The position numbers were made by a program, and so were the translations under genes. Shown here piece after piece: positions 13,082-45,300 of a DNA stretch of 64,000 nucleotides (the stretch's first letter is position 1; every line of letters starts with the position of its first letter). The stretch lies in NCBI GenBank assembly GCA_902806565.1, contig CADCXA010000007.1, forward strand, positions 186,001-250,000. The letters are read 5' to 3'. Origin of the DNA: Hypoxylon rubiginosum. Its lineage: Eukaryota > Ascomycota > Sordariomycetes > Xylariales > Hypoxylaceae. The notes beneath the pieces are model-generated. The model was given only the letters and a program-made list of their open reading frames with translations, did not search any database and had not been told where the DNA came from.

Positions 13082-16000
13082 TTAATTGTCAATCATGTAC
13101 GTATCGCTTTCTCCGCCAGGCAAGGAGTCCTCTATCCTGTCGAAGTCCTCCTCTGTGAGCTCGCGAATCCGTCTGGATTCGATTCTCTCCTGTACATCCA
13201 CTAGGTTTAATTGTCGAGTGAATGCGGCGAATTCCTTTGCAGCAAGTGCCTTGGTGAGACCATCTGCCATCATATCCTTCGTAGGGACATAGGTGACTTT
13301 AATCCGATTTGCGAGTGCCTCCTGCCGTAGCCAGTGGTTGTGAATATCCACGTGCCGCAGCTTGGTTTGAAGTAACGCAATGTCTGCGTGTACCAGCCTG
13401 ATCGTTTGCTTATTGTCACAGTGTATTGTAATCCTCGAGTCATCCAGACTCACACCGAGCTCTGTGATTAGACGCGATACGAACATGGCTTCCTTTGCAG
13501 CCTGCGCAAGAGACAACAACTCCGCTTCTGTTGTAGAAGTAGTCACTGTGTCTTGCTTGTTCGCACGCCATCCAATCACTCCTCCAAACAGCTTCATTAC
13601 GTATGCTTGTGAACTCTTTCGATCGAGGGTGTTGTCGGCAAACGAGGCGTCGCTGGCTACTTCGAATGTATCGGCATGTCCGTATTGTAAGGACAGGTAT
13701 TGGGTGGCAAGGAGGTATCGAATTAGTCGGTCGGCTTCAGAATGGTGCTCGTTGCTGGGATTCATATTGAATCTGGCCAGTCGGGAGGCTGCGAAAGCAA
13801 TATCGGGACGTGTGATCACTGCTGCGTACAGTATCGATCCGATCTTTTGTTGGTATCGTTGAATAGACTGTAGGGAAGCCAATTCTGACGAAGGTAACAG
13901 TTCCTTGTTTCTCATAGGAGTTGAAGGGATAATTCCTGGTTTCTCATTTGTTAACAGTTTGCTTAACTTGTCCACGTATGAGGATTGAGAAAGCCAGATC
14001 AGTCTCTTATCTCGGTCTCTGATCACTTCGATTCCGAGAAACCACTGCAAGTCATCTCCGCCTGTAAGTTGGTACTTCTCTCGTAGCTGTGATACCACTG
14101 CGTCTACTGCTTGTTGCCTGTGGCCTTGGTATGCGAGGACGATATCGTCAACATAGAAGAAGATTAGCACTCCGTCTTTGGAGAAGCAGCAAGGCTCGTG
14201 GGGAACGGCTGAGAAGCCTAATTCCGTGAGTGTCTTGGTCAGCTCCTTTTGCCAAAGTAGGGGAGATTCTCTCAATCCGTATAACGCTTTCAGCAGACGT
14301 AGAATGGTCTGGCGTTTCCGGTACCCTGGAGGCATCCTCATATAGATTTCCTTGTCTAGATTTGCGTTCACGAATGCGTTAACTGCATCGTACTGGATTA
14401 GCTCGAGGTCGAATCTTGCTGCAATTGCAATAAGGGTTCGGAATGATCTTCCGGCTAATGTTGAGGCGTAGGTGTTTAGGTGCTCGTCTTTGGTCTGCTG
14501 GTCTCCTCGGACCACCAGCCTTGCTTTGCACTTTATAAACCATCCGTGTTTATCGAATTTATACACGTATACCCACATGCAGTCTAGAATCTGCTTGCCA
14601 TTAGCGGTCTGTTGTTCACATTCAACCCAGGAGTTCATCTCCTTGTGGCTATCCAGGTGTGATTTCTCAGCTTCTCTGAATCCTTGCCCTAGGGCATGGT
14701 CCCGTAACTCCTTGTGAGTTTTCGGGGGAGGTGGTAGATCCCTCCTATGGATTCTCTGCTTTCTTTGCAGGAGTCTCTGCAGCCTCTCAGGTTCATATGA
14801 TCCCGGGCGTGGTACTGAATTTGGATTTGCTTGGCTTGTAGGATAGCGTCGCGGATGATGTGTCATCCGTGCTACTTGTGCCTTGCTCACTGGCTTTCCG
14901 TGCATTGATCCCATCGCCGAGGTTAGGCGTCCTGCATTGAACGTGGCCTCCCAACTCGTTGCGTGGTCCGTGGCTCCGGAATAAGAGGTGGGTGAATCCC
15001 TCTTGGTCTGCTTCGGGAGCGCGCTGAGAGCTGCAGCTCGACCTACTGGGACAGCGTCTCTCATATTTTTGTTTCGGGAGGCGTGATTCACGGCGCTCAA
15101 CCTTGTTTTCTCTATTTTGTTGCGGGAGGCGTGATTCACGGCGCTCAACCTTGGTTTCTTGATCATATCCGGGGAGGCGTGATTCACGGCGCTCAACCCT
15201 TCTTCTATGTCGGTATCCGGGGAGGCGTGATTCACGGCGCTCAACCCTTCTCTTATTGTTGCAGTGAATAACGAAGCAGCCGGTGGAGGAGTAGCATCGG
15301 GAGTAGGGTATGGCATGAATACAGCTTCAGTGTAGGGGTGATCAAGCCCTTCAGCTTCTTCGTTGTCACATTCTCCGTTATCGCCATCCACTTCACGGTC
15401 TTGCTCGCCTTCATCTTCTGCTGGCATTTCTGCCTCTGTCTCGTCTTCTTCAGGAGCCGATGGCCCTGGGTCAGCCTCTCTTTCTGCGTTTTGCAGGGTG
15501 GCGACCTGGTTAACTAGGTCTCGGATATTCTCCTCTGTTGTGTGCAACAGGTCATCCTTCAAGGATGAGATATCTCCGTTGAACGTAGTGTCTTCGTCAA
15601 ATGTGACGTCTCGTGTTTTGATGACTCGTCCTAACGTAGGGACCCAGATATTGTAAATATTCGTGGAGCTGTAGCCTACTAGGTAGCCTATCCATGCTTT
15701 CGGATTGAGACGTTGGCGTCGGTTCTGTTTTCGCTTTGCCTCTGCAGTGAGCGCAAACGCCTTACATCCATACACCCTTAGGTGAGCTTGATGTGGTCTC
15801 TTGTCGGTGACTACACCGTCTCTGAAAGCCAAATAAGTGTAGAAGCGCTCGTATGGAGATTGCCAGTTGAGGTTATACTTAGGAGTGCGATTGTAGAGGT
15901 AGGTAGCAGCTTTGAAAACCTCTACCCATAGGAAACTCGGAAGCTTTGATCCTATTCTCATCGTTCGAGCTTTCTGCTTAATTACACCCCCCGAGCGTTC

Positions 16001-17047
16001 GGCGCCTCCATTCTGATCTTGCGTATCTGGTGCCGAGGGCTCGAGTTTAATATGGTGTGTCTGTTGAATGTGATCTCGTACGGCGTGCTTTCTTGTCACT
16101 AGCTCGTTGTCACACTCGATAGCTTCAATATTGAGTTGGTGCTGTTTCCGAATGATTCCGAATATCCAGTCTAGGACTTCGATAATTGAGTCTGAAGTAC
16201 GATCTTTGAGATAGAAGTCCCAGGCCCATCCCGTACATCTATCAGTGATCAGCATTATACACCAATATCCTTGAGAGTCTGTTTCCAAGTCGTGGAAATC
16301 AATAGCTAAACGTTCACCTGGCTTGCTTGGTCGTTCGCGACGCTTGCGATAATTGAGCTTCTTGGCCTTTCCACAGCCACACGCGTCGCACTTCACTGTA
16401 GTGATTCGATCGGTCTTCTTGGTTGGGCCAGACTCCTTAATCTTCACCCCCCGAGAGTGACCAGTCGCGTGATTAAGGGCTTCTGGTCCTGGGTGGCCGA
16501 ATCGTAGGTGCCATAGTTCGCTAGTTGCCGTGCTTGGAGGTCGCTCCGTCCAGCTGTTAAACTTGACGCTTCTTGTGTGGAATGAGTAATTGGTGAAGTT
16601 CTCAGGAAGATCCTCCAAGACGTATTGGTCCTGTCTGTCAATAATGGTGCACAGGACGGAATCATCCTTTCTTCGTAGGCAGTTATTCGTGCCTTTGTGG
16701 TCCCACCAGTATCCCATTCTTCTTAGGAGCCTCAATGACACCACATTGCATGCGAATCCTTCACAGTATGCTACGTCTCGCAATCGTAGGAGCCTTGCTC
16801 CTTCTGGACTCTTTAGACGTACATCCACTTCTCCATATCCTTGTACAGGCACAACTGAGTCTCCTGCGAAGATCGCGTCTCCAGTGTGTGCTGTTCGGTA
16901 TGACAGGAATCGGCTGAGTCGATTGAAGATGTGAATAGTGGTCCCTGAGTCCAGAATTGCTGAGTTCTTCAAGGGATAGGTATTGACTCCGAATGCGGCC
17001 TGTAGAGTTGAGAACGTTCCTTTTGTTCTCCCAATTACTCGAACTAG
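13082..17047 (-). CDS. pol: Copia pol: protease, integrase, reverse transcriptase, RNase H
   Basis: The frame is continuous with gag and opens directly after its UGA, giving about 1321 residues. In order it holds: the aspartic protease motif DSGTT; a GAG-pre-integrase/HHCC zinc region (LWHLRFGHPG, then CDACGCGKAKK); the integrase DDE core (AIDFHDLE, ECDNE, NGGAERSGG); reverse transcriptase with KARLVVRGD, LLKALYGLRESPLLW and the YVDD active site; and RNase H (SDASFADN, STTEAELLSL, CDNKQT). No in-frame ATG occurs until about 110 codons after the gag stop, past the protease motif, so pol cannot be made complete by independent initiation there. Four 16-residue tandem repeats lie between integrase and RT. 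No premature stop was seen. Confidence 0.96.
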   Translation of the reverse strand, partial: LVRVIGRTKGTFSTLQAAFGVNTYPLKNSAILDSGTTIHIFNRLSRFLSYRTAHTGDAIFAGDSVVPVQGYGEVDVRLKSPEGARLLRLRDVAYCEGFACNVVSLRLLRRMGYWWDHKGTNNCLRRKDDSVLCTIIDRQDQYVLEDLPENFTNYSFHTRSVKFNSWTERPPSTATSELWHLRFGHPGPEALNHATGHSRGVKIKESGPTKKTDRITTVKCDACGCGKAKKLNYRKRRERPSKPGERLAIDFHDLETDSQGYWCIMLITDRCTGWAWDFYLKDRTSDSIIEVLDWIFGIIRKQHQLNIEAIECDNELVTRKHAVRDHIQQTHHIKLEPSAPDTQDQNGGAERSGGVIKQKARTMRIGSKLPSFLWVEVFKAATYLYNRTPKYNLNWQSPYERFYTYLAFRDGVVTDKRPHQAHLRVYGCKAFALTAEAKRKQNRRQRLNPKAWIGYLVGYSSTNIYNIWVPTLGRVIKTRDVTFDEDTTFNGDISSLKDDLLHTTEENIRDLVNQVATLQNAEREADPGPSAPEEDETEAEMPAEDEGEQDREVDGDNGECDNEEAEGLDHPYTEAVFMPYPTPDATPPPAASLFTATIREGLSAVNHASPDTDIEEGLSAVNHASPDMIKKPRLSAVNHASRNKIEKTRLSAVNHASRNKNMRDAVPVGRAAALSALPKQTKRDSPTSYSGATDHATSWEATFNAGRLTSAMGSMHGKPVSKAQVARMTHHPRRYPTSQANPNSVPRPGSYEPERLQRLLQRKQRIHRRDLPPPPKTHKELRDHALGQGFREAEKSHLDSHKEMNSWVECEQQTANGKQILDCMWVYVYKFDKHGWFIKCKARLVVRGDQQTKDEHLNTYASTLAGRSFRTLIAIAARFDLELIQYDAVNAFVNANLDKEIYMRMPPGYRKRQTILRLLKALYGLRESPLLWQKELTKTLTELGFSAVPHEPCCFSKDGVLIFFYVDDIVLAYQGHRQQAVDAVVSQLREKYQLTGGDDLQWFLGIEVIRDRDKRLIWLSQSSYVDKLSKLLTNEKPGIIPSTPMRNKELLPSSELASLQSIQRYQQKIGSILYAAVITRPDIAFAASRLARFNMNPSNEHHSEADRLIRYLLATQYLSLQYGHADTFEVASDASFADNTLDRKSSQAYVMKLFGGVIGWRANKQDTVTTSTTEAELLSLAQAAKEAMFVSRLITELGVSLDDSRITIHCDNKQTIRLVHADIALLQTKLRHVDIHNHWLRQEALANRIKVTYVPTKDMMADGLTKALAAKEFAAFTRQLNLVDVQERIESRRIRELTEEDFDRIEDSLPGGESDTYMIDN
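15081..15250 (-). repeat. Four 48-bp tandem repeats inside pol
   Basis: The core GCGTGATTCACGGCGCTCAA (plus strand) starts at 15081, 15129, 15177 and 15225, exactly 48 bp apart. It encodes four copies of a 16-residue unit with the core LSAVNHAS and variable charged spacers, in the hydrophilic linker between integrase and reverse transcriptase. Confidence 0.9.
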
Positions 17048-29299: not shown

Positions 29300-30910
29300 T
29301 TACACATCCTTTTTCATACCAACCTTCCCGACCTTGCGTAATCCAACGGCACTTATGGCAGCACTGACGACAGCTGCGGCAAAGCAAGTCCAGAACGCAG
29401 CCCGGTATCCCTTAAGGGTTGCGTAGGATTGGTCTGCCCCTGGCTTGCTTGCCTCAGCCTCCGTGACTGCGGATGCTATGATTGCAGTGATCGCGGGCCC
29501 GATACTGTTTCCCAATTGAGTCACAGTATTGAAGACTCCACCGGCCAATGCCTGGTCTTTGCTCGGAAAGCTCGACGTAATTACCAGGTTGCTGATGTTG
29601 AACAACAAGTCGGTGCTGATCACGCTGAGACACATGGATGGAAACCCAGCAGCCCAGTACATCCAGCTCGGACTCTGAATGGCGAAGAGTAGCGGTGATA
29701 CGGCACTCAGCAAGCCACCAATTAGAACCAGGCTACCAGCCGAGACTCTATCCATGATGAGACCGGCCACCATGTTTGTGAGTATACCCACTATGACCAG
29801 GGGTAAAAATCGGAGGGCGGCTTGGAGAGCATCTAGTCCCTGTGTGATCTGGAAGAATAGCGTCGCCCAGTATCCAAAGGCGTTGAACCATGACCACACG
29901 AGAAAGACCGTGATACAGATCGTGGTAAACGCTCCCTTGCGCCAGACACTGTTCGGCAGGATGGCGGGTCGGCCAAGTCGCTCTTGACGGCTAACCCAAA
30001 ACACGAAGAAGGGGATCAACAAGACGGCAACAATCAATAGCACGATGTTGTATGGTTCCTTCATCACGCTGCCGCTGTATGTTATCTCAGCGAATATGTA
30101 TGAGAGCAGTGCGAGGGAGATGCTGGCCGACGCAACCCCGACCCAATCGAACTCGTGTAGCAGCCGATGCTTTACGTTAGGAACAGCAGTAGTCTTGGGC
30201 ATGGTGAACCAAGCGAGGACGAACGTGGCGCCGCTGACGCCGGTCGCTAGATAGTACGCCGTCCTCCAGTCCGAAACTTGGACGAGGACGCCACCAAGAA
30301 CGAGGCCGATGGCGAAACCAAGGGGACTACCACCGCCGAATACGGCGAAGCCGATGTTGCGCGTCTTGCCGCTTGGGAACGTGGTGGTAATCGTGCTGAC
30401 GGCGGGGGGCAGGCAGAACGACATGGCGACGCCCTGCAGGGCGCGGAAGATGATGAGCTGGTTGCCGGTCTGCGCTAGAGACACGGCCAATGTCCAACCC
30501 GTGTACAGCAGGGTGCCCGCCAGGAAGATGGGCCGGTTGCCGACGACATCGGCGACGGCACCTAGTAAAAGGAGCGTGCAACTGAGAGCAAGAGCATAAA
30601 CGGAGGCGGGCCATAGTAGCAGATTGCTAGGTAGCTGAAGCTCCTCTGCGATGGCCGGAAGAGCGACGGTAAGTGTGCCGGAGCTAAAGGTATTGAGAAA
30701 CGATACGCAGGACAGCGTGGCCATCAAAGCAGCCGCGCGTGCCTTGCTAGGCGCGACAGGCTCCGAATCGACGGCAGCGGGCCCTGCAAGATTTGGGACG
30801 GCCCCTATCGCTTCGACTTCCACCGGCGGTGCAATCTGCTGTTCCCCATCATCGCCTTTGCTGTGACGGGTGATTGTCGACAGCTCCGTTTCCGTAGCGG
30901 TAGACGACAT
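29300..30910 (-). CDS. MFS drug:H+ antiporter, DHA2-like (14-TM)
   Basis: A single-exon 536-residue exporter. A ~55-residue polar N-terminus is followed by a repeated pattern of hydrophobic helices consistent with 14 TM segments. TM4-6 carry RALQGVAMSFCLPPAVSTI and GSPLGFAIGLVLGGVLVQ, and TM11-14 include the GNSIGPAIT stretch. Such pumps usually export toxic or secondary metabolites. It lies 1.4 kb from an O-methyltransferase and 3 kb from a P450, so a role in exporting their product is plausible but unproven. Confidence 0.9.
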   Translation of the reverse strand: MSSTATETELSTITRHSKGDDGEQQIAPPVEVEAIGAVPNLAGPAAVDSEPVAPSKARAAALMATLSCVSFLNTFSSGTLTVALPAIAEELQLPSNLLLWPASVYALALSCTLLLLGAVADVVGNRPIFLAGTLLYTGWTLAVSLAQTGNQLIIFRALQGVAMSFCLPPAVSTITTTFPSGKTRNIGFAVFGGGSPLGFAIGLVLGGVLVQVSDWRTAYYLATGVSGATFVLAWFTMPKTTAVPNVKHRLLHEFDWVGVASASISLALLSYIFAEITYSGSVMKEPYNIVLLIVAVLLIPFFVFWVSRQERLGRPAILPNSVWRKGAFTTICITVFLVWSWFNAFGYWATLFFQITQGLDALQAALRFLPLVIVGILTNMVAGLIMDRVSAGSLVLIGGLLSAVSPLLFAIQSPSWMYWAAGFPSMCLSVISTDLLFNISNLVITSSFPSKDQALAGGVFNTVTQLGNSIGPAITAIIASAVTEAEASKPGADQSYATLKGYRAAFWTCFAAAVVSAAISAVGLRKVGKVGMKKDV

Positions 30911-32358: not shown

Positions 32359-33519
32359 ATGGCTGACCACTCGTTCCTCATCCAATATCTCAGTCAGCCG
32401 CGGGAGGTTGACGATGAGACTCGCTTCCGCCTCATCTCGGCCTGCCAGGACGTCATCGAATCCTTGGAACCGCCTCTTGGAACAGCACGAAGACATTCTT
32501 TTTTGTTGCTAGACCAAGCCGTCATCCGCGCCGCTATCCAGCTCGACATCTTCAGCCTCCTAGTTGAGCGCGGTGTTCCTTGCACGACCGAACAGTTGGC
32601 GGCTTCTACGACACCCTCTTGCGATGCGGCTGTTCTGTCCCGCCTTCTTCGCTACCTCGTCAGCCCCTTACGACTAGTCAAAGAAGAAGGCCGTGATCTC
32701 TGGAGCGTCACTCGACCCGGTAGGGTCTATGCCGATCCGAAATTCAAATCCAGCGTTACTATGTACTTTGATGCGTGCGGTCCGGCTTTCTTGGCACTCC
32801 CCAAGTGGTTATGCACTACACCGACCGACCGAGCGGTTACTGCATTCAAAGCAGCGCACCCCGACGAAGAGGGCTTCTTTTCATGGCTACAGAAGGACGA
32901 CGCGAAGCTGCAAGCCTTCCACACGTGGATGGGGGTCCTTAAGACTTACCAGTTCGACAGTCTAGATACCATCGACTTCAACCAGTGGATGCCTGACGAC
33001 ATTCCTGAGGACGAGGTGGCCTTTGTGGATATCGGCGGTGGAACGGGAAACCAGTGTGTTGCGGTGAGGAAGAACCGAGGGTCTCGACCGGGCCGCATCA
33101 TCAACCAAGACCGCAAGGAAGTGGTGGATAGCGCGCGAGGATCGCTCGAGGAAATGAAGGTGGAGACGATAGCCCACGACTTCTTCGCCGAGCAGCCCAT
33201 CCAAGGCGCGAGGATCTACCACTTTCGCCAGATCTTCCACAACTGGCCGGATAAGGACTGCGTCAAGATCCTCGAGCGCACTAGGGAGGCCATGTCTCCA
33301 TCCTCCACCTTGCTAATTGACGAGGTCGTGCTGCCGGAGACAGGAGCGCACTGGATGGCCACTCAACGTGATCTCAACATGACGGCGCTTTTCAACGCGA
33401 AGGAGCGAACAGAGTCGCAATGGCGAGAATTGCTCTCCCAGGCACATTTCCGGGTGGTAGGGGTTCACTGCTACGATAAGAAGCAGCCAGCCTCTTTAAT
33501 TGAAGCCAAGAAAGAGTAA
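32359..33519 (+). CDS. SAM-dependent O-methyltransferase (plant-COMT/sterigmatocystin-OMT type)
   Basis: A single-exon 386-residue class-I methyltransferase. Residues ~45-120 form the winged-helix dimerisation domain. The SAM-binding loop VDIGGGTGN is at 223-231, and the catalytic base is His294 in FHNWPD (293-298). These enzymes methylate phenolic hydroxyls of polyketides and other aromatics. It is divergent from the MFS gene and convergent with the P450 (379 bp apart), which suggests a tailoring pair in a small metabolite cluster. Substrate cannot be told from sequence. Confidence 0.92.
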   Translation: MADHSFLIQYLSQPREVDDETRFRLISACQDVIESLEPPLGTARRHSFLLLDQAVIRAAIQLDIFSLLVERGVPCTTEQLAASTTPSCDAAVLSRLLRYLVSPLRLVKEEGRDLWSVTRPGRVYADPKFKSSVTMYFDACGPAFLALPKWLCTTPTDRAVTAFKAAHPDEEGFFSWLQKDDAKLQAFHTWMGVLKTYQFDSLDTIDFNQWMPDDIPEDEVAFVDIGGGTGNQCVAVRKNRGSRPGRIINQDRKEVVDSARGSLEEMKVETIAHDFFAEQPIQGARIYHFRQIFHNWPDKDCVKILERTREAMSPSSTLLIDEVVLPETGAHWMATQRDLNMTALFNAKERTESQWRELLSQAHFRVVGVHCYDKKQPASLIEAKKE

Positions 33520-33898: not shown

Positions 33899-35463
33899 TC
33901 AAGAGCTGCTGTGCCGCATCTGCCCTCGCTTAATAAGGATCACGTTACACTCGCTACCCTTCATGAAGAATCCCTCTTGCAGCTCTGTCTCTGCCTCAGA
34001 CGCTCGAACCACGTCGAATTCCTTGAATAGCATCGCTATCGCTTTCGATAGCTCCATCCACGCGAAGTGCTTGCCGAGACAACTACGCGTGCCGTAGCTG
34101 AATGGAGCCCACGACGCTGTCATGGTCGCGGAGTCGCCGTCGAGCCAGCGCTCCGGGATGAATTGATCTGGGTTGGGGAAGACGTCCTCACGGCGATGCA
34201 GAGTATACGTCGGCACGCTTACCAGAACGCCGCGCGGGACTACGTATTCCCCAATTGTTAACTCTTTACCCGTAATCCGCTCGAGCCCTGCCGCGCTAGT
34301 CGGGCGTAGCCGCATAGTCTCCTTTAGTAGCGCCGTCAGGAATGGAAGGTTCCCCACGATCTCCTCATTGGGTACCCAGTCGGACGGCTGAGATCCGCTG
34401 AAGGCCGTGTCTAGCTCGTCTTGTAGGCGGCGCATGGCATCTGGCCTCCGAGACACAAAGTCGACAAAGTGGGTCAATGTCGTCGAGGTAGAATCACTAC
34501 CGCCCGATACGAAGCTCGCTGCCTCAGCAATAATACTCTCGTCAGGGAGGGGCATCCCGTTCTCCTGCTTCGCTCTAATTAGGAAGCTCAGCATGTCATC
34601 CCGGTCCACGCTAATCTGCTTCTTTCGAGCTTCAGTCGACGTTCTGGCTAGAGCCTGCAGGTTCATGGTGGTCGCCAGGTTTTGCCTCCAGAAGCCGTCG
34701 AATGGCATCCACTTCATCCATGGGCGGGCCCATCCCGGTACAGTACCAAGAGCGTTCAGACATTGCATGCGCAGGTCGATAGTGGAGATCAGATTGTGAA
34801 AGTCATAACCCGCGTCGATGAAGCCAAAGGATTCGCCAAAGACGAAGTTGGCAATAACGTCGAAAGCCAAGTAATTGGCCCAGGGTGCGAAATTGAGAAA
34901 TGCAACCCCTCCTCCGGCCTCGACCTTGCGAGTTAACGCGTGTTTCAGGTTCAAGATCTGGGTGCTCATGTACGGCTCAAATCCTCTGAGAGCAGATTTA
35001 GAGAAGGCGGGGGTCAGGTCTTTCCTTCGGCGCGCGTGGAAGAAATTGTCTCGAGCCGAGAAGATGATGGGCACTTTCGGTCTGAAGACGTCGTAGAATG
35101 GGCCCTTTGATGTCCCGCTGTTCGAGCCGTATACTTGTTGGAGGCAGCCCTTGGAAACAACGGAAATGTTGTTTGGACCGACCCGGACGACGTCGCCGTA
35201 CTTTTGGTGAAGTGCGTGAATGGAAATCGAGCGGCGGAAGAGACGGCATTGGAGTGTTAACCAAAATGGTGTCACTCTAGCGGCAAGAGGTCCTGGCACA
35301 TTTCTCAGAGGGTCGAAGAAATAAGCCCATAAGAGATACAGTCCGGCCTTCAGATCGTCAGCTTTCTCACGGCCTCTCAATACTTATGGGCGGGATTATA
35401 ACTTACCACTGCAAGTGCGACGATAAGAGGTAACAAGCAGCTATGCTCAGTGAGAAATATCAT
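33899..35463 (-). CDS. Cytochrome P450 monooxygenase
   Basis: Microsomal class-II P450 of 501 residues from exons 35463-35407 and 35347-33899 (59-bp intron). The short first exon supplies most of the N-terminal membrane anchor (LLPLIVALAVAGLYLLWAYF), followed by the Pro-rich hinge NVPGPLAAR. The I-helix motif reads GGSDSTSTT, and the ExxR and PERW motifs are present (KETMRLRP, FIPERW). The haem-binding loop is FSYGTRSCLGKHF with Cys442. All hallmarks are intact. The hinge and start of the catalytic domain resemble the pisatin-demethylase group, but substrate cannot be assigned. Confidence 0.93.
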
Positions 35464-38559: not shown

Positions 38560-41451
38560 ATGGCCTCCCTAGACACCAACGCGTTGGGAAGACTGAAGCC
38601 AGTTCCACGTTTTCAGGAGCTGGCCTCCTTGATTCCCGAAGGCCTTGGGCGAGATTGCTATAACTCTGTCAAGAACACTGTCGATCATCTTGGCAGGGCT
38701 GTTCAGCTCGGCCAACACAGACAATTCATTGAAGCCTTCAGTTCAACGCTCGGAGTTGACACCCTCTTAGCAGTTGCCTCCGTGTCTATAGACAATGAAG
38801 AGGTCTGCTCTGCTTTCAGTGTGTACTTTACGACACTTGAACAAGCTTACTATTGGCCTCGGGACCAAGATGTCCAAACACCTAGCATGCTCATGGAGCA
38901 CAAGTTAGTCATCCAGACACTCCATCACCCAGAGCTGAGAGAAATGCTGCTCGGTGCTTTGGATTTTCAGAGAGGAGATGTAGCTCTGGCTGCCTTAAAG
39001 ATGGCGAAGGCTATGGTCGAGGAAGCACGTATGGCTCGTCGCGATGGCAAGAAACTAGATAATGCCAGGCAAGACAGGGTTAACTTGCTATACCGCACCT
39101 GTACGGAAGATTGGGCTTGTCAAGGAGATTACAACGACACGGACAGCCATAAGGAGTTCGGACGCCTTCACGAAGTCATACGCACAAATGGAACTCAGCG
39201 AAGCGTGCAGGAGATCTTCGAAGCAGCCTCTGGGCTTAGATGGCTTCAGGAGATGCCATCACTGCTGTCGTCATTACCAACATCTTCAGATCTATTATGC
39301 GATGCGTTTCTGGATCTTCAATTGGCCATCGCCCTTGGCCGAGAAGAACTTTATTCTATGATGATTGATGAAACCATATGGGGCCGGACATTTGCAAAAT
39401 ACTCCAAGGGCGTTGATGTTTGCACAATCGGCGCAGGTGGTGCTGATTGTCCTATGTTTCGCATGCTTGATGCCCTCTGCGGAAGAGCAGATGGGACTAC
39501 CCAAGCTGCACTCCTGGATGAGCTGGACTTCCGGTCACGCTTTTTCCCTCGAAACTTTCGAGCTCTCATCAACACTGTTGCATCTTCGCCATCGATTCGG
39601 CAATATGTATCGTCAGGGAAGACCAGCTACGTCCTGGCTCAAGCATTCAAAGCGCTTCAACAACAACTCTTCGACATCTACGAGATGCACCGCAAAAAGG
39701 CGATGCGAATTGCACTTTCCCTCCGCGCTGGCCAGGCGACTACATCTTCAGGCACGGAAAAAGCTGCCAGCCCGGAATGGCATATTGCCAATATGCTCAG
39801 TTCAGCCATGAAAGTGCGATTTGGCGACGACCCAGAAACTTTGAAGATCGACGCTTACACCTGGTCGACCCCCCTTTTATACGGCACGGATGGGAAGATC
39901 GAGTCAGCTCGTGTTCGCTTAGTCTTTTCAACGCCTCTAGCGCTCAGCCCCGGAGACACGATCAGCGTCAGCGTCCAGATAAAACCTGGGCAATGGCACA
40001 CGCGAACATATTCCATCACACAGACCGATGCGCAATGGGGCCACTCTCAGGGCGTCTGCTCAATCACCAGCTCAGTTGAAATCTGCGTTCGAAGACGCGG
40101 ATTGGTCTCCACGTACCTGTGCAACCAGCAGTCCGGGTTTCCGACTCGGGTCGCGGTCAAATCTGCTCCCCATTTTCGGATCCGCGGAAACTCAAACCAC
40201 GACGAAGAGACGATATTCGTTGCCCAAGGTGGAGCAGTCGGCGTCTTCCTCCCGTGGCTCTACCAACAGAAGTGTCTGATCGGGAAGTATACACTCATAG
40301 TCGCTACCCGAAACTGCAATATGCTGGCGTACGCGAGCCGATTGCATCGACTCGCGAGTCAGTTCGGTCCGCAGCTACGTATAGTCATCGGGTTGTCCAA
40401 CGCAAACAAGGGAGACATCAAGACCCTCTCATTTGGCAGAATTGAAGCGTACTGCGGGAGGGTCACAGAGTACTTGAAGTCGTGCGCCTTGAGCAAGGAC
40501 GCCACGACGTATGTCTGCGGCTCGTCTGCTTTTGGCGTAGATGTTGCAGACCGTATCGCGGCGCGACAAAAGGACACAGTACAGAATGATCTTGGACCGA
40601 GGTTGGCCCCTGTTCTTACATCCTCATTGCCGAGCATACGGCTCCATGTTGCTGCTGGCTCACACGCTGTGCAAAAAAGCTGCAAGCTCAGGAGCATTTC
40701 CCGAGCCGAGCTCGCTCTCCACAATTCACCGGGCGACTTATGGATCGCGCTAGGAGACCGCGTGTACGACATCTCCGCCGTCTCAAGCTTCCATCCCGGC
40801 GGCGAGAAGGTGCTGACGTACCGGGCCGGCAGGCAAGCCCAAGACGTGTTCAACAGCGTCCACGAGGGCAGCTACGAGGTGGACTCCCTCCTGCAGCAGA
40901 TGGTCATCGGCATGCTGGCGCCGGGAAACCCGGCGGACCGCGAGTGGGAGCAGCGGCTGGACAAGGTCGTCGAGATCCAGAACGACCTGACCAACAACAC
41001 GCGGTTCGAGCAGAAGCCGACCGGGTCGAGCCGGCAGCTGAGCCAGGCCCCCCCGGCGTACGTCGTCCGCGCGTCGCTCGACGACTTCGCGAAGGCGTGG
41101 GCGGCCCTGCTGTCGGGCGTCTCTGGCGGCGGCGACGAGGAGGAGGACACCGTCGCTCTGCTCGAAGCGTCGAGGGAGAGCGCGAGCGGCTACTTCGACG
41201 AGATACAGTCGCGGGTGTACCGCGACAACTTTGACGACGAGGAACGCTGCGCGTTGGTCCTGCGCGACGTGTTCGAGTCGGTCGAGGTCGCGGTGAGCAA
41301 GATCCACGCTGCGATCGACGACGTGAAGGGGTATATGTTTGAGTGTTTTGCGAAGAGCCAGGAGCCTTTGGTAACTACCTGTCTGCATGATGGGACTAAG
41401 CGGATTATTACGGCCCTTGAGCAGATTCCTCTAAGCAGTGTGGCCTTGTAG
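38560..41451 (+). CDS. IDO-like haem domain fused to FAD/NAD(P)H reductase and cytochrome b5
   Basis: A single-exon 963-residue protein. Residues ~15-390 resemble indoleamine 2,3-dioxygenase. GAGGADCPMFRMLD (291-304) lines up with IDO1 GGSAGQSSVFQCFD. RSRFFPRNFR (325-334) matches the RRYMPPAHR region with the same spacing. His377 falls one residue from the position of IDO1's proximal haem ligand His346. IDO1 Arg231, which binds the substrate carboxylate, has no clear counterpart, so the substrate may not be tryptophan. Residues ~425-675 form a ferredoxin-reductase-like module: FAD motif RTYS (482-485), nucleotide-binding GGAVG (557-561) and YVCG (651-654). Residues ~711-787 are cytochrome b5 with HPGG (745-748) and probable axial ligands His745 and His768. 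A helical C-terminus of ~170 residues is unassigned. The predicted electron path is NAD(P)H to FAD to b5 to haem. The b5 and tail coding is markedly GC-rich. Confidence 0.82.
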   Translation: MASLDTNALGRLKPVPRFQELASLIPEGLGRDCYNSVKNTVDHLGRAVQLGQHRQFIEAFSSTLGVDTLLAVASVSIDNEEVCSAFSVYFTTLEQAYYWPRDQDVQTPSMLMEHKLVIQTLHHPELREMLLGALDFQRGDVALAALKMAKAMVEEARMARRDGKKLDNARQDRVNLLYRTCTEDWACQGDYNDTDSHKEFGRLHEVIRTNGTQRSVQEIFEAASGLRWLQEMPSLLSSLPTSSDLLCDAFLDLQLAIALGREELYSMMIDETIWGRTFAKYSKGVDVCTIGAGGADCPMFRMLDALCGRADGTTQAALLDELDFRSRFFPRNFRALINTVASSPSIRQYVSSGKTSYVLAQAFKALQQQLFDIYEMHRKKAMRIALSLRAGQATTSSGTEKAASPEWHIANMLSSAMKVRFGDDPETLKIDAYTWSTPLLYGTDGKIESARVRLVFSTPLALSPGDTISVSVQIKPGQWHTRTYSITQTDAQWGHSQGVCSITSSVEICVRRRGLVSTYLCNQQSGFPTRVAVKSAPHFRIRGNSNHDEETIFVAQGGAVGVFLPWLYQQKCLIGKYTLIVATRNCNMLAYASRLHRLASQFGPQLRIVIGLSNANKGDIKTLSFGRIEAYCGRVTEYLKSCALSKDATTYVCGSSAFGVDVADRIAARQKDTVQNDLGPRLAPVLTSSLPSIRLHVAAGSHAVQKSCKLRSISRAELALHNSPGDLWIALGDRVYDISAVSSFHPGGEKVLTYRAGRQAQDVFNSVHEGSYEVDSLLQQMVIGMLAPGNPADREWEQRLDKVVEIQNDLTNNTRFEQKPTGSSRQLSQAPPAYVVRASLDDFAKAWAALLSGVSGGGDEEEDTVALLEASRESASGYFDEIQSRVYRDNFDDEERCALVLRDVFESVEVAVSKIHAAIDDVKGYMFECFAKSQEPLVTTCLHDGTKRIITALEQIPLSSVAL

Positions 41452-42369: not shown

Positions 42370-45300
42370 CTAGGCGCCCGGGGGGATGCAGGCCTGGCCG
42401 GATGCAGTCTTGTAATGATTTTGCAACGTATCGGCCCGTGCGAACTTCTTTTGACAACCCCATCTTTGGCCATTCTCCAACTCGCCTCCACATATAAATT
42501 CTTTCTCTTGGTGTGTCTTCTTGTGGCGGTTTAGGTCGTGCAGCCTAGCGAATGAAGAACTGCACTCGCTACAGGTGTATGGCCGATTGTCACTGTGGGT
42601 GTTGAGGTGAGACTCGAGGTTGTACTTCTTCTTGAAGACTCTTTGACAATGTGGACAAGGGAACTCGCTGATTCGAGGTCGTTTCTGAGGGCGTAGAACC
42701 GGCTCAGTGCGCTCTTCTCGAAGTTCCGGATCGACGTTCTCTTCTGTAATTATCGTTTCAGTTTGCCTAGACCGAGTGATTTCTCCATCTTCGGGGTAAT
42801 CAGTGTCCTCGTTATTTGAAGGCCCGTGAGTTTCTCTAATATGTTTTTCGAGCTCTTTTTCTGTGACGAAGCCTACAGTACTGCTGAAGCAACCGCTTAT
42901 GATGCAGCGGTACGGTCGAAGATGCTTGTCTATGTGCTGGTCTCTCTGTTCAGCCGTTTGAAATCCATTGTGGAAGTATCGACAACTTAATCTTGGGCAT
43001 TTGAAGATATTTTGTCCATACATTTCCTCTATCCTCGCAGCTTCTGCTGTATGCGCTGCACCGGTGTATGTTTCTTCCAGCTTGGCACGAATATTCTTCA
43101 CAATATCAGCCAGATCGAGAGCAATCTCAGCTCGTTTTATCTCACCCGGGAAGGTTAGCTCTTTTCGCGCTGATGCTACAGCTTGCTGCAGATCAGCGTG
43201 AAATGGACATTTCTGGAATAACCGTAGCCTCTTGGAATTACCCTGTGATATTGGAAAGGGCTTGGTCGGTGAAGTATAGTGGAGCTGAAGGAAAGCTTCT
43301 ACCGATTCTGCGAGGGTGTCGAGGATCTGGTCGTCTTCTTCAGCGTCATCTACACCCTCTTCTAGGTGGCGAACCCAATAAGGGACAGCATAGTCCATGA
43401 AACCATAATAGCCATTCAAAACTAACGAGCCAATCTCGTCGGTCCCGCTGTGAAAGCCTGCCATGTTTAGATAGTCGACAGAAAAAGATGCTAACAAAAT
43501 ATCGCCTTGGGATACATCGACTTTACTTTGCTCGGAAGCCATGAAGCTACGAGTTATCCAGTTCAGTACAACCAAGACTTTTTGCATTCGCTTATTGGGG
43601 CCCTACTTACAACTTAGCAGTAGTGTGCACAAACTCCACTCCTCCGTCGTCACGTATTTCTACTAAAGAGCCACACAAGTCTTTCGAGTCATCGGGACAA
43701 CAAGACCGTTGCGCGTCTACAGATTGAGACTCAATATCAATAGATATGGCGGCCTGGATCTCGCGCCATTTGAGAGTACGCTTTGCCCATACAAGCCAGC
43801 GAATCAGCGTCTCAGATGTTCTTCTTCCTCGATCTGTGGCTTGATCGAAGAACCTCGAAAGGATACGGGAATAGCTTATTACCATCGTTAGCTTATGCCT
43901 ACAGTTTTCGCGAGGTATAGTTGCTCACGCTTGGCTAAGCTCTTTAGGTATTCGGTCGTCTTCGATCTCGGCTTCAATATCGCCGACGCATGTTTGTTGC
44001 ATAAGGTTAATGGAAATTAGTTTTGCTAGTAGAAACATGCCTACATAAGCCATTAGCACAATGACTAAAAATATAGGAAAATGTAGCCCTTTTCCGTACC
44101 CTTAGCAGTGCTTTGGATCTTGGAGGCGATTCGATTCCGTGTGTCGTCAGATACTGAAAAGTGGGTTTGAATTTTGGCAGCTTTAGCCGCGCTGTAGACC
44201 TTAATGTCATCCTCGTTATCTTTGCTGTCGATCTTTAAAGACGTGAGACCACGAAAGTCTTTGCTTGCGATGCCATCATGTTGGCTCACAAACAGGCATC
44301 GCACACGATCTTGATTTGGCGGTTGCAAATTCTCGACCAGGTTGCGAAACCAGCTTGTTATGTTCCTTCTTTCACCTCTCTGGCACTCATCTATACCGTC
44401 AATTACGATATAAACACTTGGACAATTCAATAGTGCTACTCTGAGAAGGTCTTCGATTACAGAGTCTGTGTCAAGAACGGCGGTGCTGCTGTTAGTGAAC
44501 CTGTCGTAGTAATACGGCAACAGGATATCCCTGTTTTTTGGAAGAAGTTGAGACAGAAAGCTGCGCCCAATAGAAGCAAAACTATTCTTGCTGTTGTCTC
44601 CATCTTTACAATAGAAAAACAGAGTAATAGGGGAAGGCGTTAATTTTGTAGCTTCTTCTACAACCAAGGAAGCAAGGATAGTTTTCCCTAGCATTTTGTT
44701 AGTGGGTACATTCACACGTGGTCCTCTGTGAATCTATTTACCGGCTCCAGGTATTCCCGTCATCCATAGCAAGGGAGGTATCGTCGGGCATCTGGGGTCA
44801 AACCATTCTTCGAAGGCACGGACGCGCAAGAGCCATCGTCCAGTGCCGGGGTACTCCTTTCGAATCTTAGAGTAATCATGTTGGTCATTTTCAACATTTG
44901 GTGCACTCAGCCAGGCGAATACTTCGCGGAGCCGACGGTTTTCCTGCTCGTCTAGTATGGACTGAAGCTTGTAATTTTGTATCTGGGTGGACTTTCTATA
45001 GTCCTCGATCTGAGACAACGTGGCTTGGTTTTGGACTAATAGACCGTGGCCCCGTATATTATCTATCAAGGGCTCGAAGCGAGACTTATAGGTCTTCCAA
45101 GTTGATTGAAAAAACTGCCTCCACACTGTTTCTTTATTTAGTGCGGCTATCATAGAATATCAGGTGTCGCGGCATACTTGCTTGCTGGAAATACTTTAAT
45201 GCCCGACGATGAAACTCCAGGATGTCTTTATACATGATGGTCAGGACTCGTAGCATATTTGGGTCCTCGCGGAAGAGCCTTTCATATTGAAGCAATAAAG

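What the first reader, a model, noticed from the sequence alone, without database searches (positions are those of the whole stretch)
38560..41451. Self-contained electron chain: IDO-like haem domain, flavin reductase and cytochrome b5 in one polypeptide
Seen: one uninterrupted 963-codon frame with an IDO-superfamily C-terminal half (GAGG...D304, FPRNFR, His377, collinear with human IDO1 Gly262-His346 within one or two residues), a RTYS/GGAVG/YVCG FAD-NAD(P)H module, and a b5 HPGG domain. Known: mammalian IDO1 is reduced in cells by cytochrome b5 and cytochrome P450 reductase, which are separate proteins. Inference: this is a natural self-sufficient IDO-type oxygenase, comparable in logic to P450BM3 or flavohaemoglobin. 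The lack of an obvious match to IDO1 Arg231 suggests a substrate other than tryptophan. I know of no description of this architecture.
Basis: partly seen in the sequence, partly recalled or inferred. Interest (0 to 1): 0.88.

Follow-up and report, generated by a model that had tools for sequence, protein, structure and literature searches.

The report
Fungal IDO-fold enzyme with built-in reductase
A single fungal protein appears to combine a tryptophan-dioxygenase-type haem domain with the flavin and cytochrome b5 parts needed to feed it electrons, and one of its relatives is an unexplained gene of the apicidin pathway, which makes the question of what it oxidises directly testable.

The parts
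38560..41451 (+). CDS, 963 aa: IDO-fold / FAD-NAD(P)H / cytochrome b5 / C-terminal helical domain
   Evidence: Open frame; 29 further homologues aligned
38569..39849 (+). IDO-fold haem domain, residues 4-430
39688..39690 (+). His377, predicted proximal haem ligand
   Evidence: 30 of 30 family rows; aligned with the HR.K His of the longer relatives and with the IDO His
39832..40659 (+). FNR-type FAD/NAD(P)H module, residues 425-700
40684..40929 (+). Cytochrome b5 domain, residues about 709-790, axial His745 and His768
   Evidence: Pfam Cyt-b5 E=1e-15 over 715-786; both His 30 of 30
40930..41448 (+). C-terminal all-helical domain, residues 791-963, function unknown
   Evidence: Helices in AF2 model; weak profile match to the C-terminus of the longer relatives, 36.3% against at most 1.6% in controls
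32359..33519 (+). O-methyltransferase-family gene, 386 aa, candidate cluster partner (proximity only)
   Evidence: Pfam Methyltransf_2 E=5.7e-21; nearest solved structure by sequence LepI
33899..35380 (-). Cytochrome P450, candidate cluster partner (proximity only)
   Evidence: Pfam p450 E=2e-64
29300..30910 (-). MFS transporter, candidate cluster partner (proximity only)
   Evidence: Pfam MFS_1 E=1.5e-50; TIGR00711 efflux_EmrB E=6.3e-38, below its cut-off

Best explanation
The gene encodes a self-sufficient haem oxygenase on an IDO scaffold. NAD(P)H reduces the FAD of the FNR-type module, the cytochrome b5 domain carries single electrons, and these reduce the His377-ligated haem of the IDO-fold domain, where O2 is bound and activated. 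Because ordinary IDO dioxygenation needs only one priming electron while monooxygenation by IDO needs re-reduction, a permanently attached reductase points to a monooxygenase (two electrons per turnover) acting on a tryptophan- or indole-like substrate, probably in secondary metabolism. Supported by computation: domain folds, their order, conservation of the ligands, and that one relative sits in the apicidin F cluster. Inferred: haem and FAD occupancy, electron path, monooxygenation, substrate.
Against: No biochemistry exists. Direct sequence match to IDO is insignificant (Pfam E=0.07; family profile against a narrow set of canonical fungal IDOs 1.1%, reversed control 0.6%; no IDO among the 60 of 156 PDB rows shown); the link runs through the longer relatives and predicted structure. 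The usual NAD(P)H motif GTGxxP (recalled) is replaced by QGGAxGxF, and by eye the aromatic residue that ends the reductase module in the longer relatives is a small residue here (A698/A699; sequences), so hydride transfer may be altered or lost. No haem was modelled. The IDO substrate-carboxylate Arg (Arg231, recalled) is not matched. A stand-alone reductant can support IDO, so fusion alone does not prove monooxygenation.
Confidence: 0.6

Rival explanations
1. A true dioxygenase (tryptophan or indole ring cleavage) whose reductase arm only keeps the haem ferrous and repairs autoxidation, as b5/CPR are proposed to do for mammalian IDO1.
For: IDO fold; CPR with or without b5 supports IDO1 in vitro (PMC13142367, passages); in Chitinophaga a longer relative lies 38 bases upstream of TrpE, TrpG, TrpD, TrpC and TrpB-type genes.
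Against: The same genome already has two strong IDO genes (558 bits on C1; 385 and 102 bits from two adjacent stretches on C15) and a divergent third (84.6 bits on C14); the apicidin F product keeps an intact indole as N-methoxytryptophan.
Confidence: 0.2
2. An electron-transfer partner for a neighbouring P450 (as the name cytochrome b5-like reductase implies), with a catalytically retired IDO-fold domain.
For: P450 gene next door in the window; two P450 genes in the apicidin F cluster; weak classical IDO sequence signal.
Against: His377 with Tyr374, Met376, Arg378, Lys379, Lys380 and Gly293, Gly294, Asp304 is invariant in 30 of 30 rows, which a retired domain would not be expected to keep. 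Deleting the general P450 reductase alone abolishes apicidin F, so the fusion does not replace CPR there.
Confidence: 0.13
3. A nitric-oxide dioxygenase (flavohaemoglobin-like logic) or a redox/gas sensor on an IDO scaffold.
For: Flavohaemoglobin is the top Foldseek row of the full model, in a list dominated by reductases; 26 of the 120 longer relatives shown carry FHA domains (hand count), and a CBS-domain gene stands directly before the relative in three of the three Chloroflexi/Armatimonadetes loci tested.
Against: The haem domain has the IDO fold; no FHA family appears among the 19 Pfam families matched by the 30 fungal members, and one member sits in a biosynthetic cluster.
Confidence: 0.07

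Closest known systems
Apf12 (FFUJ_00009) of the apicidin F cluster, Fusarium fujikuroi (PMC4109984; passages and section 30 part 1 seen)
   Same: Same family: P0009, 54% identity over 98% of the query, 961 aa; shares the 30-of-30 residues
   Different: Annotated only as cytochrome b5-like reductase; not among the deletions named in the passages I saw; strict orthology is not resolved by the tree
Indoleamine 2,3-dioxygenase (IDO1, IDO2; PF01231)
   Different: 15-17% identity over the aligned part; 12.3 against a cut-off of 26 bits; no match to the FYxxIR arginine; fused reductase and b5
Longer bacterial/fungal IDO-reductase-b5 proteins (P0034-P0159 here), with source names such as sulfite reductase flavoprotein, FHA domain-containing or cytochrome b5 domain-containing protein
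   Same: Same domain order; profile match in IDO and reductase parts, weakly in the C-terminal domain
   Different: CPR/SiR-like FAD domain (PF00667) in most rows shown, a usual GG(T/S/A/G)G-type motif in 113 of 126, FHA or GGACT extensions in 26 and 46 of 120 rows shown; 5 of 5 sampled rows form their own group in the tree
IDO repurposed in a fungal gene cluster (terreazepine, PMC7448278; abstract start and two passages seen)
   Same: IDO used in fungal secondary metabolism
   Different: The passages show no reductase or b5 fusion (no occurrence of 'cytochrome b5' or 'fusion')
P450BM3, flavohaemoglobin
   Same: Haem oxygenase plus reductase in one chain
   Different: Cys-ligated P450 or globin haem domain, no b5 (recalled); analogy of logic only
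PrnB, MarE and other His-ligated haem-dependent aromatic oxygenases
   Same: His-ligated haem oxygenases of the same superfamily as IDO/TDO; MarE monooxygenates with ascorbate (PMC12312684 abstract; PMC11791213 passages)
   Different: No fused reductase known to me; purified PrnB gave no product with b5, CPR or the other partners tried

Membership tests
IDO (PF01231) | Pfam model above gathering score | tested here: not met
   12.3 bits against 26; 12 of 30 family members at E<=1, best 0.005
IDO (PF01231) | IDO fold over small and large domain | tested here: met
IDO (PF01231) | Proximal haem His | tested here: met
   His377 aligned with the IDO His and invariant in 30 of 30; haem binding itself not testable here
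IDO (PF01231) | Substrate-carboxylate arginine (Arg231 of IDO1, recalled) | tested here: not met
   No Arg under the FYxxIR arginine in the 7 fusion rows printed; this stretch aligns poorly
IDO (PF01231) | Conversion of Trp to N-formylkynurenine | not testable with these tools
   Needs an enzyme assay
FNR-type NAD(P)H reductase | FNR fold | tested here: met
FNR-type NAD(P)H reductase | FAD motif RxYS and second FAD motif GxxS (recalled) | tested here: met
   R482 30, Y484 29, S485 28, G514 30, S517 30 of 30
FNR-type NAD(P)H reductase | Nucleotide motif GTGxxP (recalled) | tested here: not met
   QGGAVGVF in its place; no Pro
Cytochrome b5 (PF00173) | Profile match and two axial His | tested here: met
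   E=1e-15; His745 and His768 30 of 30
PrnB / TDO (other His-ligated aromatic oxygenases) | Profile or structural match better than to IDO | tested here: inconclusive
   No such family among the 19 Pfam families; the rows shown are all IDO1/IDO2, which does not exclude kinship
Apicidin-type gene cluster | NRPS near the gene | tested here: not met
   25 condensation-domain matches in the genome, none on contig C7 (the tool calls such counts lower bounds)

The most novel reading that the evidence does not exclude
The family (Apf12 and its relatives, including this gene) is a new class of self-sufficient haem enzyme in which an IDO-fold domain fed by its own reductase and cytochrome b5 hydroxylates the indole nitrogen of tryptophan; an O-methyltransferase (Apf6 in Fusarium; perhaps the gene at 32359-33519 here) then makes N-methoxytryptophan.
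Probability: 0.28. Interest if true: 0.88.

Novelty: new variant of a known kind. Interest (0 to 1): 0.75.

Why it matters
How IDO-type enzymes get their electrons in cells is unsettled, and purified PrnB gave no product with any redox partner tried in the paper I looked at. A natural IDO-fold protein with the whole electron chain attached would give a system in which this can be measured directly. It also offers a concrete candidate for the unproven tryptophan N-oxidation step of apicidin F, an antimalarial HDAC inhibitor, and shows that IDO-reductase-b5 fusions occur in several bacterial phyla and in fungi under names that hide the IDO part.

Tried and rejected
Single-sequence searches did not find IDO or the reductase: Pfam gave IDO at E=0.07 and no reductase family, NCBIfam gave nothing at E<=0.001 for the window protein, and phmmer against the PDB listed b5-containing chains only, plus one labelled sfGFP. 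The family profile against a narrow set of canonical fungal IDOs was not significant (1.1% against 0.6% reversed); only the path through the longer relatives worked.

Apicidin-type regulation: the published box TGACGTGA occurs twice in the window, 2.14 expected, neither near the gene. No condensation domain on the contig. So the window is not an apicidin cluster, and the partnership with the nearby O-methyltransferase, P450 and MFS genes is proximity only. I could not test whether that methyltransferase is an Apf6 orthologue, since no Apf6 sequence came to hand.

Published evidence against the N-hydroxylase reading. Niehaus et al. propose the P450 Apf8 for tryptophan oxidation, and a CPR deletion abolished apicidin F without derivatives (data not shown there). 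Since the aps7 deletion still gave apicidin E, another CPR-dependent step seems essential; this fits Apf8 better than Apf12, though it could be a fatty-acid step. A 2024 review says that, by knockout profiles, only APF1, APF3, APF4, APF5, APF6 and APF7/APF8/APF9 directly take part (PMC10967133, passages), and in F. semitectum not all cluster genes were shown to be involved. I saw no deletion of APF12 itself.

Bacterial context was looked at in a selection: ORFs of 11 of 24 loci were listed and 30 neighbouring ORFs from 10 loci scanned. No one context was shared by all. A paper on fungal b5 reductases with b5 fusions holds neither 'indoleamine' nor 'dioxygenase' (PMC4557397, passages).

A regex for the terminal aromatic of the longer relatives matched 126 of 126, but it can match anywhere in the protein and so proves nothing. 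PrnB and TDO do not appear among the rows shown; that does not exclude kinship.

Full report
What is there. The frame at 38560-41451 (+) is a single 963-codon ORF in a 48 Mb assembly that its nearest proteins mark as a Hypoxylon-like fungus (three Hypoxylon proteins at 86-90%, 87-91% in the alignment). The protein search returned 40 proteins: 29 cover 88-100% of the query (P0001-P0028, P0031) and were aligned with the window; P0029, P0030 (74 and 73%), P0032, P0033 (60 and 57%) and the seven distant hits P0034-P0040 were left out of that alignment. Named sources are Hypoxylon, Fusarium, Conoideocrella, Claviceps, Cordyceps, Beauveria, Penicillium, Apodospora and Microsporum; others are unnamed.

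Conservation of the working parts. Over 30 rows: His377 (proximal-ligand position) 30, with Tyr374, Met376, Arg378, Lys379, Lys380 also 30; Gly293, Gly294 and Asp304 30; flavin motif Arg482 30, Tyr484 29, Ser485 28, and Gly514, Val516, Ser517 30; Cys653-Gly654 30; b5 ligands His745 and His768 30. Against a standard reductase: the nucleotide-binding stretch is QGGAxGxF and not GTGxxPF (standard motif recalled), and by eye small residues (A698/A699) stand where the longer relatives end the module with an aromatic. The divergent form is itself conserved (Gln556, Phe563, Trp566 30 of 30), which suggests change of use rather than decay, but altered or lost NAD(P)H use is possible.

A wider family. 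The seven distant hits carry Pfam-called reductase and b5 domains, five of them also IDO. A search with these seven found 333 proteins; in the 120 rows shown every one has PF01231 and PF00173 together with PF00175 and/or PF00667, 26 also FHA and 46 GGACT-type domains (hand counts from the table; P0034, a query member, is among them). By plain phmmer P0035 matches SiR flavoprotein, IDO2, IDO1 and b5 in the PDB. A scan of bacterial and archaeal genomes found 24 loci, in Chloroflexi, Armatimonadetes, actinomycetes (Nocardioides, Kitasatospora), cyanobacteria (Chrysosporum, Limnofasciculus), Bacteroidota (Chitinophaga, Aquimarina) and others; one of the 24 (L036) is a weak match over 85 residues. 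Profile comparison of the window family with 126 of the longer proteins: IDO part 97.1% (residues 268-398), reductase 97.6%, C-terminal domain 36.3%; reversed profiles gave 0.1, 1.2 and 1.6%, 20 column shuffles each at most 1.0, 1.1 and 1.5%, and three random subsamples of 31 rows 96.6-97.3% for the IDO part. The longer proteins match canonical fungal IDO at 99.7%. In a tree of the 30 members and 5 longer proteins the two groups are separated by long branches, and the tool warns that long branches meet.

Link to a known pathway. P0009 is named FFUJ_00009 in its source. Niehaus et al. 2014 (PMC4109984; passages and part 1 of section 30 read) list FFUJ_00009 as APF12, 2885 bp, cytochrome b5-like (reductase), next in number to APF6, the O-methyltransferase (FFUJ_00008). 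APF12 transcript was seen only when the regulator gene APF2 was overexpressed. The deletions named are APF1, 2, 3, 6, 9 and 11. Apicidin F contains N-methoxy-L-tryptophan; they argue that tryptophan must first be oxidised on nitrogen and suggest the P450 Apf8, without proof. An enzyme on a tryptophan-dioxygenase scaffold with its own electrons is a natural alternative. Against it: loss of CPR abolished apicidin F with no derivatives, and a 2024 review counts only APF1, 3, 4, 5, 6 and 7/8/9 as directly taking part (PMC10967133, passages). In the tree Apf12 groups with three further Fusarium rows and one unnamed row, the window with the three Hypoxylon rows; how these clades relate is weakly supported (forks 86/88 and 80/95).

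Neighbourhood in the window. An O-methyltransferase gene (32359-33519), a P450 (33899-35380) and an MFS transporter (29300-30910) lie within 10 kb. Their kinds resemble Apf6, Apf7/8 and Apf11, but this is likeness of kind only. The contig shows no NRPS condensation domain among 25 genome-wide matches and the apicidin box is not enriched.

Mechanism. The most economical chain is NAD(P)H to FAD to b5 to IDO-type haem. From PMC12921851 (abstract and discussion read), dioxygenation by IDO needs only a priming electron while monooxygenation needs a reductant; MarE shifts to monooxygenation with ascorbate (PMC12312684, abstract). A covalently attached reductase therefore favours monooxygenation, though simple haem repair is not excluded. 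None of the steps has been measured for this family in anything I saw.

Novelty. Ten answered full-text searches of open-licence papers listed no paper whose title or abstract start describes an IDO-reductase-b5 fusion. Four of the listings were capped well short or slightly short (20 of 365, 20 of 23, 15 of 60, 25 of 51 papers), and subscription journals are not covered. The kind, a self-sufficient haem oxygenase, is known from P450BM3 (recalled); the IDO scaffold with b5 is what appears new.

Noticed in passing
L026:5974-14347 (Chitinophaga solisilvae): A longer IDO-reductase-b5 relative lies 38 bases upstream of genes of TrpE, TrpG, TrpD, TrpC and TrpB type on the same strand, as if in one operon.
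   Followed up: partly
L013:5037-5945, L014:4828-5457, L018:5078-5935: In one Armatimonadetes and two Chloroflexi loci a CBS-domain gene (with a response-regulator domain in L018) stands directly before the longer fusion; many relatives carry an FHA domain, which suggests phospho-signalling control.
   Followed up: no
P0089-P0156: 46 of the 120 longer relatives shown begin with or contain gamma-glutamylcyclotransferase-like domains (PF06094/PF13772) besides the IDO domain (hand count).
   Followed up: no
L028:5183-5881, L032:5225-5908, L026:5075-5815: DsbA-like thioredoxin genes stand directly upstream of the fusion in two Aquimarina loci, with a weak DsbA match (E=0.005) in Chitinophaga.
   Followed up: no
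L012 (contig C14:113341-114165): A divergent IDO gene (84.6 bits) besides two strong ones in the same genome; its longest frame runs 398 aa with no room for a reductase in that frame.
   Followed up: no
window 13082-16972 (-): Copia-type retrotransposon polyprotein with reverse transcriptase and GAG-pre-integrase matches, 1296 aa open.
   Followed up: no
window 40930-41448: The C-terminal helical domain is weakly shared by both fusion groups, with a conserved VEIQNDLTN stretch; fold and role unknown.
   Followed up: partly
window 42370-43587 (-): C2H2 zinc-finger protein gene next to the fusion.
   Followed up: no
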